40,752 nucleotides of DNA. Source: Psychromonas algarum. GTDB taxonomy: Bacteria; Pseudomonadota; Gammaproteobacteria; Enterobacterales; Psychromonadaceae. Where the stretch lies: the NCBI RefSeq assembly GCF_004376845.1, contig NZ_SNUW01000016.1, positions 1-40,752 on the forward strand. The letters run 5' to 3'. The first letter of the stretch is position 1. Each line of letters begins with the position of its first letter. This document shows, one piece after another, positions 10,112 to 11,964 of this stretch. Made by a program: the position numbers and the translations under genes. The notes below the pieces were generated by a model. The model did not search any database, was not told where the DNA came from, and saw nothing but the letters and a program-made list of their open reading frames with translations.

Positions 10112-10648
10112 TTAGCGCTTGAAAGAACCTCTACGAGGTCGTTTATTTCTTTTTTTATCTTTGTTATACATAAGAGCAAAAGCTGCATGACAAAATTCAG
10201 CTAAGGCTCGACGGTATACGTCACGTTTAAATGACACAACTTGACGAACAGGATACCAATAAGTAACCCATCGCCAATCATCAAATTCTGGATGGCCACA
10301 AGACTCAAACCCAATTTGCTCTTCTTCTGCAATCAATTGTAATAAAAACCAGCGTTGTTTTTGACCTATACATACAGGGGCGGGAGACTCCCAACGAACC
10401 AAACGTTTAGGTAATTTATAACGTAACCATTGGCGGCTACTAGCAACTATTTTTACATGTTCAGGCTTTAAGCCAACTTCTTCGTACAATTCTCGATACA
10501 TAGCTTGTTCAGGTGTTTCACCTTCTTTAATTCCACCTTGTGGAAATTGCCATGAGTGCTGTCCGAAACGTTTAGCCCACAATACTTGACCATTTTTATT
10601 ACAAATGATGATACCTACATTAGAACGGTAACCATCAACGTCAATCAT
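10112..10648 (-). CDS. rppH: RNA pyrophosphohydrolase
   Basis: Removes pyrophosphate from the 5' triphosphate end of mRNAs, which opens them to RNase E decay. The 178-residue protein begins [17 protein letters not shown], aligned with the E. coli start, so I use the ATG at 10648, preceded by AAGG; a TTG two codons earlier is unlikely. The Nudix box spans about residues 38-60, [23 protein letters not shown]-type, with the catalytic REL-EE residues. The C-terminal tail is strongly basic. It is the first gene of the rppH-ptsP unit and diverges from mutH. Confidence 0.96.
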
Positions 10649-10681
10649 TAACAACCTTAATAAGGTTAAGATCCATCCTAT

Positions 10682-10690
10682 TTATACACA
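10682..10690 (+). promoter_or_regulatory. DnaA box TTATACACA
   Basis: A perfect match to TTATNCACA on the plus strand, 34 bases upstream of the rppH start codon. It could affect rppH expression or be an outer box of the DARS2-like locus. Confidence 0.6.
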
Positions 10691-10836
10691 AGTAAATAAA
10701 CGACAAAGCAGAATGGACGAAATTATAATTATGCTGCATTCTTTCACAGAAAGCCCCTACCATCAAACTGATACACTATAAAAAAAGTAAGCTCTCCTAC
10801 TTAGGTCACGTTTATAGAAAATGCATTATTAAATAT

Positions 10837-10866
10837 ATCCACTAATTCTGTGCATAAGTATGTGTA
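10837..10866. promoter_or_regulatory. DnaA box cluster A (DARS-core-like)
   Basis: Contains TGTGCATAA (10849-10857), a perfect inverted DnaA box; a left box-like element ATATCCACT (10835-10843, two mismatches); and a right one TGTGTACAA (10861-10869, one mismatch when inverted). Spacing between the elements is the same as in cluster B. Confidence 0.55.
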
Positions 10867-11063
10867 CAATTAAACAGAAGTAAATAGTTAAGAATACATC
10901 ATAAACATCAAGATCTTTATTAAAATAATTAATTTAGAGTTATTTTAATAAAAAACAATAAGTTACATTAATTGAAAAGTGTAAAAAATTAGATCCCTGT
11001 TATTAGATCCAGTATTTTTAATTCACAATGCAATGTGCATATCTTCACTGTTCAAAAAGTATT

Positions 11064-11076
11064 CATCAACTATTTA
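11064..11076 (+). promoter_or_regulatory. IHF-like binding site
   Basis: CATCAACTATTTA matches the IHF consensus WATCAANNNNTTR at all specified positions but the first. It lies between the two DnaA box clusters, where a DNA-bending protein would be expected in a DARS2-type locus. Such a match is not rare in AT-rich DNA. Confidence 0.35.
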
Positions 11077-11177
11077 AAAGCAATTTATTGTTTAAAAAAC
11101 AGACATAAAAACAACTTATTAGGCTATTAAAAGTCATTTTTAAAAATTAAAATAAGAACTTATCCAATACTTCACTT

Positions 11178-11207
11178 ATCCACTAAAATTGTGCATAACT
11201 CTGTGTA
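11178..11207. promoter_or_regulatory. DnaA box cluster B (DARS-core-like)
   Basis: TTATCCACT (11176-11184, one mismatch to a DnaA box) faces a perfect inverted box TGTGCATAA (11190-11198), followed by TGTGTAA. It is 25/30 identical to cluster A and lies 86 bases before mutH. Confidence 0.6.
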
Positions 11208-11292
11208 AGTTCCTTTTAAAACTATGAATAACCTAAAATATGAAAAGCACGTACAATAAAAAATAGTTTATTTATGCCGATAGAGAATAACC

Positions 11293-11964
11293 ATGAAAGC
11301 AACTCCCACATCTGAAAGCCAGTTATTAGAATATTGTGAAGCAATTGCTGGTTATTCATTATCTGAATTAGCTGAAATAGCCAATATTCCTGTTCCTAGA
11401 GATCTACGTAAAAATAAAGGTTGGGTTGGACAACTCATCGAATGGCACCTTGGTGCAACCGCTGGCAGTAAACCTGAACAAGACTTCAAACATTTAGGGA
11501 TAGAATTAAAAACAATTCCTATTGATAGACAAGGTAAAGTTTTAGAAACCACCTTTGTTTGTAGCACACCTATTTTACATACAACACATTTAACCTGGCA
11601 CAACAGTAATATTCGTAACAAATTAAGCAAAGTCTTGTGGTTACCTGTACAAGGTGAGCGACAAATCTCTCTTGCTGAGCGGATTGTAGGTAATGGTTTT
11701 TTATGGACAGCTTCTCCAATACAAGAACAATTAATGCAGCAAGATTGGGATGAGTTAATGGAAAAAATTGCGCTTGGAAAAATAGAGCAGATTAGCGCAC
11801 GTGATGGCCAAGTATTACAACTTCGCCCTAAAGCTGCAAATGGTCAATCGCTTACCGATGCCTATGGTGATCAAGGACAGCTAATAAAAGTACGTCCTCG
11901 TGGTTTTTATCTCAAAAAAAGCTTCACTCAAGGAATTATTAACCAACAATTTAATCTGTATTAA
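11293..11964 (+). CDS. mutH: DNA mismatch repair endonuclease MutH
   Basis: Nicks the unmethylated strand at hemimethylated GATC sites when activated by MutS-MutL. The 223-residue protein has the type II restriction-like active site: E50 in GQLIEWHLG, then D64, E71 and K73 in the D-x6-E-x-K arrangement (FKHLGIELKTI), with the spacing seen in E. coli MutH. Its presence implies Dam-directed mismatch repair. It diverges from rppH, the conserved gammaproteobacterial arrangement, and is followed after 81 bases by a small plus-strand gene. Confidence 0.96.
   Translation: MKATPTSESQLLEYCEAIAGYSLSELAEIANIPVPRDLRKNKGWVGQLIEWHLGATAGSKPEQDFKHLGIELKTIPIDRQGKVLETTFVCSTPILHTTHLTWHNSNIRNKLSKVLWLPVQGERQISLAERIVGNGFLWTASPIQEQLMQQDWDELMEKIALGKIEQISARDGQVLQLRPKAANGQSLTDAYGDQGQLIKVRPRGFYLKKSFTQGIINQQFNLY

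What the first reader, a model, noticed from the sequence alone, without database searches (positions are those of the whole stretch)
10649..11292. DARS2-like DnaA-box locus between rppH and mutH, with two core-like clusters
Three perfect DnaA boxes (TTATNCACA; 10682-10690, 10849-10857, 11190-11198) lie in 640 bases. Assuming about one third GC, I roughly expect far fewer than one by chance. Two sit in 30-base clusters (10837-10866 and 11178-11207) that are 25/30 identical, in the same orientation, each with a forward box-like element, an inverted perfect box and a third inverted element at the same spacing. From memory, E. coli DARS2, which regenerates ATP-DnaA, occupies this same mutH-rppH(ygdP) interval and has a three-box core. 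If so, this organism carries the locus at the conserved place but with a doubled core, which I have not seen described.
Basis: partly seen in the sequence, partly recalled or inferred. Interest (0 to 1): 0.75.

Follow-up and report, generated by a model that had tools for sequence, protein, structure and literature searches.

The report
Two-core DARS2 switch beside mutH
The DNA between rppH and mutH in this Psychromonas looks like the known DARS2 switch that recharges the replication starter DnaA, and its second core-like cluster is not peculiar to this organism but recurs at a similar distance in many related families.

Summary
Three perfect DnaA boxes lie in 644 bases (0 of 3000 shuffles). 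Two same-direction triads (10835-10869, 11176-11210) share the published DARS core layout: box I, 5 bp, inverted box II, 3 bp, inverted box III. The window is Psychromonas. At up to 2 mismatches its genome has this layout at three places: both triads and a DARS1-like site upstream of uvrB. An IHF-like and a Fis-like site lie between the triads near E. coli DARS2 positions. By sequence this is a DARS2 ortholog; no function was tested.

The doubling is not unique. Both triads occur in 58 of 89 order-wide mutH-upstream stretches in which rppH was found, and at least once in 13 of 20 sampled families (0 of 1110 shuffles). In four families their distance varies by 0-2 bp while the DNA between has diverged to about 56-61% identity. 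In E. coli the second triad is the mutH-proximal box with a degenerate partner: the strongest DARS2 ChIP-seq peak (PMC11317965), yet reported dispensable on a plasmid (PMC4245941).

Best reading: DARS2 is commonly a two-triad element, and Psychromonas keeps a sharp second triad. Whether that triad releases ADP is open.

The parts
10112..10648 (-). rppH, RNA pyrophosphohydrolase (ATG at 10648; the open frame allows a TTG at 10654)
   Evidence: NCBIfam NF001934, 304.6 bits against a cut-off of 241; frame
10682..10690 (+). Perfect DnaA box TTATACACA near rppH, outside both triads
   Evidence: perfect in 7 of 14 Psychromonas relatives
10835..10869 (+). Triad 1, at the place of the E. coli DARS2 core: box I 10835-10843 (+, ATATCCACT), box II 10849-10857 (-, TTATGCACA), box III 10861-10869 (-, TTGTACACA)
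   Evidence: layout score 21 of 24; one mismatch to the layout pattern; 23 of 35 identical to the E. coli core
10953..10965 (-). IHF-like site TAACTTATTGTTT, +104 from box II (E. coli IHF sites span +79 to +107)
   Evidence: one mismatch to the consensus; at this offset in 7 of 15 Psychromonas spacers; weak evidence
11019..11042 (.). Middle pair of one-mismatch DnaA boxes, TAATTCACA (+, 11019-11027) and ATATGCACA (-, 11034-11042), near the place of E. coli box V
   Evidence: at offset +170 in 11 of 15 and at +185 in 13 of 15 Psychromonas spacers
11050..11064 (.). Fis-like site GTTCAAAAAGTATTC, +201 from box II (E. coli Fis cluster at about +179 to +213)
   Evidence: 0 mismatches to the consensus; at this offset in 14 of 15 Psychromonas spacers, 8 exact and 6 with one mismatch
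11176..11210 (+). Triad 2, core-like: box I' 11176-11184 (+, TTATCCACT), box II' 11190-11198 (-, TTATGCACA), box III' 11202-11210 (-, ACTTACACA)
   Evidence: layout score 21 of 24; 0 mismatches to the layout pattern; 22 of 35 identical to the E. coli mutH-proximal site
11293..11964 (+). mutH, mismatch repair endonuclease
   Evidence: NCBIfam NF003458, 339.6 bits against a cut-off of 243

Best explanation
The spacer is the DARS2 ortholog of a Psychromonas. Shown by sequence: two triads of DnaA boxes with the DARS core layout, 341 bp apart in one direction, enclosing IHF-like and Fis-like sites; triad 1 sits where the E. coli core sits and triad 2 where E. coli has its mutH-proximal perfect box. 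Inferred from E. coli work: ADP-DnaA loads head-to-head on boxes I and II of triad 1, IHF and Fis bend the DNA, ADP leaves, and the emptied DnaA takes up ATP. Inferred here: triad 2 is a working part of the same folded complex, a second DnaA loading site and possibly (about 0.35) a second exchange core, because its layout equals the core and its distance to the core is nearly fixed while the DNA between diverges.
For: Gene order ptsP-rppH-mutH as in E. coli. DARS layout in both triads, the published core definition (PMC5742627 section 20). Genome-wide the layout occurs at up to 2 mismatches only at both triads and upstream of uvrB, the DARS1 place. E. coli DARS1 fits the same pattern with 0 mismatches, the E. 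coli DARS2 core with 1 and its mutH-proximal site with 3. Fis-like site at one offset in 14 of 15 Psychromonas spacers. DnaA, Hda, Fis and IhfA in the genome. Pair of triads in 18 of 21 Psychromonas genomes and in 60 of 111 stretches, 0 of 1110 shuffles. With the distance left free, 52 of 56 pairs at 18 or more fall at 300-359 bp; the same test on the other strand gives 2 of 111. Distance between triads within 0-2 bp in f1, f6, f12 and f18 at 0.56-0.61 median identity of the DNA between. Forward box of triad 2 peaks at gap 5 without Psychromonas: 5.32 of 8 against a null of 2.54, 0 of 100000.
Against: No binding or exchange was measured. In E. coli the right half of DARS2 and boxes IV-VI are reported dispensable on a plasmid (PMC4245941 section 12). 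Triad 2's forward box is weaker outside Psychromonas (5 of 8 in E. coli and f18) and inconsistent in f21. Gap 5 is the single best gap in only 6 of 12 families. The distance is looser in f16 (346-357) and f10 (301-339), and the distance from rppH to triad 1 is also steady in f6, f12, f18 and f21. 2 of 15 f1 stretches lack a pair at the threshold. The IHF-like site is kept in only 7 of 15.
Confidence: 0.72

Rival explanations
1. DARS2 has a single exchange core (triad 1). Triad 2 is only a control or titration site where DnaA collects, for example ATP-DnaA that shuts DARS2 off, as published for box V in E. coli.
For: E. coli box V works as an ATP-DnaA feedback site (PMC8682772, passages and section 3). 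The right half of E. coli DARS2 is dispensable for plasmid-driven over-initiation. The strongest DARS2 ChIP-seq peak in E. coli lies on triad 2 (PMC11317965 Table 1), which fits a binding site of any role.
Against: A titration or feedback site does not need a box I partner at 5 bp, yet that element is conserved; in Psychromonas and others triad 2 matches the core layout as well as triad 1 does.
Confidence: 0.35
2. The boxes of triad 2 are a DnaA operator that controls mutH transcription.
For: Triad 2 lies 83-117 bp before the mutH start codon; E. coli DARS2 is described as lying in the mutH promoter (PMC5835720, passages).
Against: The distance from triad 2 to mutH drifts by 186 bp in f6, 112 in f12 and 112 in f25 while its distance to triad 1 varies by 2, 0 and 5 bp. 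No promoter-like site above chance was found; that scan is crude.
Confidence: 0.06
3. A recent local duplication of the core in this lineage, without function.
For: 25 of 30 identical bases in one direction.
Against: Identity ends with the triad: 27 of 36 inside, then 20, 12, 14 and 15 of 50 in the four flanking blocks. The pair recurs at similar spacing in 13 of 20 families.
Confidence: 0.02
4. Chance clustering of DnaA-like words in AT-rich DNA.
For: The window as a whole has no excess of perfect boxes.
Against: 0 of 3000 shuffles of the spacer, conservation in the genus and 0 of 1110 shuffles in the survey.
Confidence: 0.01

Closest known systems
DARS2 of Escherichia coli K-12 (mutH-rppH spacer)
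   Same: Same gene neighbours, core at the rppH side in the same direction, an IHF-like site about 80-115 bp and a Fis-like site about 180-215 bp from box II, and a perfect inverted box with a third element at the mutH side, 316 bp away in E. coli and 341 here.
   Different: In E. coli the mutH-proximal forward element is degenerate (TTATCCCAG); here it is a one-mismatch box, so both triads fit the core layout. The middle boxes differ in sequence and spacing.
DARS1 of E. coli (upstream of uvrB)
   Same: Same I-II-III layout; E. coli DARS1 and triad 2 both fit the pattern with 0 mismatches. The window's genome has its own DARS1-like site about 530 bp upstream of uvrB.
   Different: A single triad beside uvrB; reported to work without IHF and Fis.
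datA of E. coli
   Same: DnaA boxes with an IHF site.
   Different: Promotes ATP hydrolysis on DnaA and lies at another locus; its minimal form has boxes 2, 3 and 7 (PMC5742627, passages). Not compared by sequence here.

Membership tests
DARS (DnaA-reactivating sequence) | Core of three DnaA boxes, I opposite to II and III, same spacing in DARS1 and DARS2 (PMC5742627 section 20) | tested here: met
   Both triads; E. coli DARS1 and the DARS2 core fit the same pattern
DARS (DnaA-reactivating sequence) | Stimulates ADP release from DnaA | not testable with these tools
   Needs purified proteins; inferred only
DARS2 | Lies between rppH and mutH | tested here: met
DARS2 | IHF sites between the core and the Fis sites | tested here: inconclusive
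   One-mismatch site at +104, in 7 of 15 Psychromonas spacers; only one of two sites, and chance matches are common in AT-rich DNA
DARS2 | Fis sites downstream of the IHF sites | tested here: met
   By sequence only: consensus site at +201 in 14 of 15 spacers; binding not tested; the E. coli cluster has several overlapping sites
DARS2 | Genome encodes DnaA, Fis and IHF | tested here: met
   DnaA, Fis and IhfA over cut-off; IhfB and DiaA not searched
DARS2 | Intermediate distance from oriC (E. coli: 64.0 against 84.6 min, PMC4585315) | tested here: inconclusive
   mutH about 15% of the genome from dnaA in two single-contig relatives, G011 and G089, with rounded genome sizes and dnaA standing in for oriC; E. 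coli 20.6%. The window's own assembly is in 38 contigs
DARS with two cores (proposed) | Second triad with the core layout at a nearly fixed distance | tested here: met
   layout only, not activity

The most novel reading that the evidence does not exclude
DARS2 is ancestrally a two-core device: IHF and Fis fold the DNA so that two head-to-head DnaA pairs about 300-360 bp apart work in one complex. The single-core DARS2 studied in E. coli is a derived form whose second core has decayed to a strong DnaA site with a degenerate partner, while Psychromonas and other families keep both.
Probability: 0.33. Interest if true: 0.75.

Novelty: new variant of a known kind. Interest (0 to 1): 0.55.

Why it matters
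DARS2 helps set how fast DnaA is recharged and so when replication starts. The mechanistic work that I read treats it as one core plus control sites in E. coli. A second core-like triad at a similar distance in 13 of 20 sampled families suggests that half of the element has been underestimated. It also makes sense of a strong DnaA peak on the mutH-proximal site in E. coli, a site reported dispensable on a plasmid. Both points can be tested with existing assays.

Tried and rejected
I first took the E. coli box at L001:1966-1974 for the published box V (notes). In the output the words 'box V module' therefore mean triad 2. That the mutH-proximal box is the published box VI is my assignment by order; the figures were not seen.

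Recent duplication was rejected because the flanks are not alike, a mutH operator as sole role because of distance drift. No Rfam family reaches its threshold in the spacer. There is no terminator-like site and no more promoter-like sites than in shuffles. Consensus scans for IHF and Fis alone are weak in this AT-rich DNA; only conservation at one offset was used.

Rows dropped or against. L022, a MAG contig on which my motif found no rppH start and no triad was seen, was left out of the Psychromonas spacer work (15 of 16 spacers used: L008-L021 and the window). The survey has 111 stretches: 109 of the 188 relatives with a MutH match, chosen by me to spread over families and not at random, plus the window and E. 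coli. rppH was sought with a simple protein motif (89 of 111) that can miss. The pair count allowed 240-380 bp; the free-distance check is. In the offset test, 70 of 111 stretches qualified, 10 with several equal boxes were dropped and 11 of f1 left out, leaving 49; L071 and L074 were anchored on what looks like a wrong box, and the two f2 rows probably too. The layout pattern used genome-wide was written after seeing both triads and the uvrB-upstream match, whose place was not yet known; so the fit to these is partly built in. E. coli DARS1 was not used to write it.

Full report
What was checked. The window as a whole has no excess of perfect boxes (4 found, 3.16 expected). In 3000 dinucleotide shuffles of the 644-bp spacer none had three perfect boxes and none had a same-direction pair of triads, even at 18 of 24. 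The flanking genes are rppH and mutH, with ptsP beyond rppH, in the order of E. coli.

Organism. All 15 loci that a scan with the window's MutH returned, a scan for close relatives only, are Psychromonas by title. The genome is 3.07 Mb in 38 contigs. DnaA, Fis, IhfA and Hda are found over the curated cut-offs; IhfB and DiaA were not searched.

Anatomy. Each triad is a forward box, a 5-bp gap, an inverted perfect box, a 3-bp gap and a third inverted box: 10835-10869 and 11176-11210. The published DARS core is the same: box I opposite to boxes II and III, with equal spacing in DARS1 and DARS2 (PMC5742627, section 20). A pattern of the layout meets the 3.07-Mb genome at up to 2 mismatches three times: triad 2 (0 mismatches), triad 1 (1) and a site about 530 bp upstream of the uvrB start (0). 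Two more appear at 3 mismatches, and the backward-read control gives one at up to 3. uvrB is the DARS1 place. E. coli DARS1 fits with 0 mismatches, the E. coli DARS2 core with 1 and the E. coli mutH-proximal site with 3. So here triad 2 fits the pattern better than triad 1. The pattern was written after seeing both triads, so this fit is partly built in.

Between the triads. E. coli IHF sites 1 and 2 can be recognised at L001:1729-1757, 3 bp apart as the paper states (PMC4245941, section 15), and Fis-like sites with a perfect DnaA box at about 1829-1863. Counted from the start of box II, E. coli has IHF sites at +79 to +107, Fis and box V at about +179 to +213 and the mutH-proximal box at +316. 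The window has an IHF-like site at +104, one-mismatch DnaA boxes at +170 and +185, a Fis consensus site at +201 and triad 2 at +341. Over 15 Psychromonas spacers, the window included, the Fis-like site is at that offset in 14 (8 exact, 6 with one mismatch), the IHF-like site in 7, the inverted middle box in 13 and the forward one in 11. An alignment of these 15 spacers, on average 65% identical to the window with the window counted, shows both triads, the middle pair, two GATC blocks and a few short blocks on the rppH side as conserved islands. Likeness of the triads to each other ends with the triad: 27 of 36 inside, and 20, 12, 14 and 15 of 50 in the flanking blocks.

Is the doubling special? 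In 18 of 21 Psychromonas genomes both triads occur 340-342 bp apart. G089 has only the first; G202 (51% complete) and G204 have none. The backward-read control finds nothing in any of the 21. A DARS1-like 30-mer with 0 mismatches and nearly the same letters occurs in 17 of 21; only in the window's genome did I check that it lies by uvrB. I then took 109 relatives from the same order plus the window and E. coli. A same-direction pair of triads 240-380 bp apart, both scoring 16 or more of 24, is in 60 of 111 stretches and in 58 of the 89 where rppH was found. At least one pair occurs in 13 of 20 families, E. coli not counted as one. Shuffles gave 0 of 1110. Outside Psychromonas and E. coli it is 46 of 95. 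With the distance left free and both triads at 18 or more, 56 of 111 stretches have a pair and 52 of these 56 fall at 300-359 bp; the same test on the other strand gives 2 of 111.

Families without a pair are f2, f3, f7, f14, f17, f26 and f27. In f9, f14, f26 and f27 my motif found no rppH beside mutH, though one of 9 f9 stretches has a pair. In f7 the two genes are head to head in 11 of 11 stretches but only 1 of 11 has a triad at 19 or more; six f7 genomes that I searched carry two or three layout matches elsewhere.

Evidence that triad 2 belongs to DARS2. Among stretches with a pair, the distance between triads varies by 2, 2, 0 and 0 bp in f1, f6, f12 and f18 (13, 6, 4 and 8 stretches), although the DNA between has a median pairwise identity of 0.61, 0.56, 0.58 and 0.59. 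The distance from triad 2 to mutH varies by 186 bp in f6, 112 in f12 and 112 in f25. Elsewhere the picture is less clean: f25 spans 333-338, f16 346-357 and f10 301-339, and the distance from rppH to triad 1 is also steady in f6, f12, f18 and f21. To test the forward element without using it for selection I anchored on the inverted box alone, in 49 genomes of 12 families without Psychromonas. At gap 5 the family mean is 5.32 of 8 informative bases; the null from other gaps is 2.54 (sd 0.32) and reached this 0 times in 100000. Gap 5 is the single best gap in 6 of 12 families. The commonest bases of the forward element are TTATCCAAG: the first six are kept better than the last three, so in most families it is a weaker box than in Psychromonas, where the mean is 7 of 8 in 13 pairs. 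In f21 the inverted box stands without a consistent partner. Outside f1 triad 2 scores at least as high as triad 1 in 23 of 47 pairs.

E. coli data in print. Kasho et al. 2014 (PMC4245941; sections 12 and 15 and passages seen) report that the right half of DARS2 and boxes IV-VI are dispensable for over-initiation from a plasmid, while the core, IHF sites 1-2 and Fis sites 2-3 are needed. The 2024 ChIP-seq table (PMC11317965; passages) lists three DARS2 regions with 78-, 199- and 213-fold coverage; the authors assign the strongest to CTTACACCA-tg-TTATCCACA, which are boxes III' and II' of triad 2. Its coordinates fit the NC_000913.3 record fetched here, though the paper names version 2. The 2021 paper (PMC8682772; section 3 and passages) describes box V with weak neighbours as a feedback site; its Figure 8 legend, which I saw without the figure, names eight species including Vibrio cholerae and Shewanella denitrificans. 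A 2017 review says that sequences and spacings of core, IHF and Fis sites are conserved among related species (PMC5742627, section 21). PMC4585315, PMC5835720, PMC10380432 and PMC5295017 were seen as passages. None of the text that I saw describes a core-like layout at the mutH-proximal box or a fixed distance between two cores. The literature searches were made; subscription papers, supplements and Fujimitsu et al. 2009 were not available.

Mechanism. Shown by sequence: the layout, the conservation, the spacing. Taken from E. coli work: ADP-DnaA on boxes I and II meets head-to-head and loses ADP, and DARS2 needs IHF and Fis. Inferred: the same happens at triad 1 here, and triad 2 takes part in the same folded complex. 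Whether triad 2 itself releases ADP, loads DnaA for triad 1, or senses ATP-DnaA and shuts the element off cannot be told from sequence.

Verdict. The locus is a DARS2 ortholog by sequence and the doubled core-like layout is real. It is not a peculiarity of this organism: it recurs across the order, and the E. coli form is a weak version of it. As a locus it is a new member of a known kind; the two-triad form at a nearly fixed distance is a variant that I did not find described in the papers that I could search.

Noticed in passing
window 10912-10917 and 11006-11012: GATC sites at +63 and +157 from box II lie in conserved blocks of the Psychromonas alignment; a role for Dam or SeqA is a guess.
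   Followed up: partly
window 10739-10748: TTCTTTCACA, which holds a one-mismatch DnaA box, is a conserved block on the rppH side of the Psychromonas spacers.
   Followed up: no
L141 (G000:C36:85930-85959, - strand): DARS1-like single triad about 530 bp upstream of uvrB; a nearly identical 30-mer is in 17 of 21 Psychromonas genomes.
   Followed up: partly
G196:C23:38274-38303 and G196:C29:29783-29812: One Psychromonas genome has two further, identical core-like 30-mers on two contigs; context not read.
   Followed up: no
L054-L056, L125 (family f2): No same-direction pair; besides a strong triad there is an oppositely directed weaker one about 100-120 bp away in several.
   Followed up: no
family f7, e.g. 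L093-L097: rppH and mutH are head-to-head but 10 of 11 spacers have no triad at 19 or more; six such genomes have two or three layout matches elsewhere, so DARS2 may have moved.
   Followed up: partly
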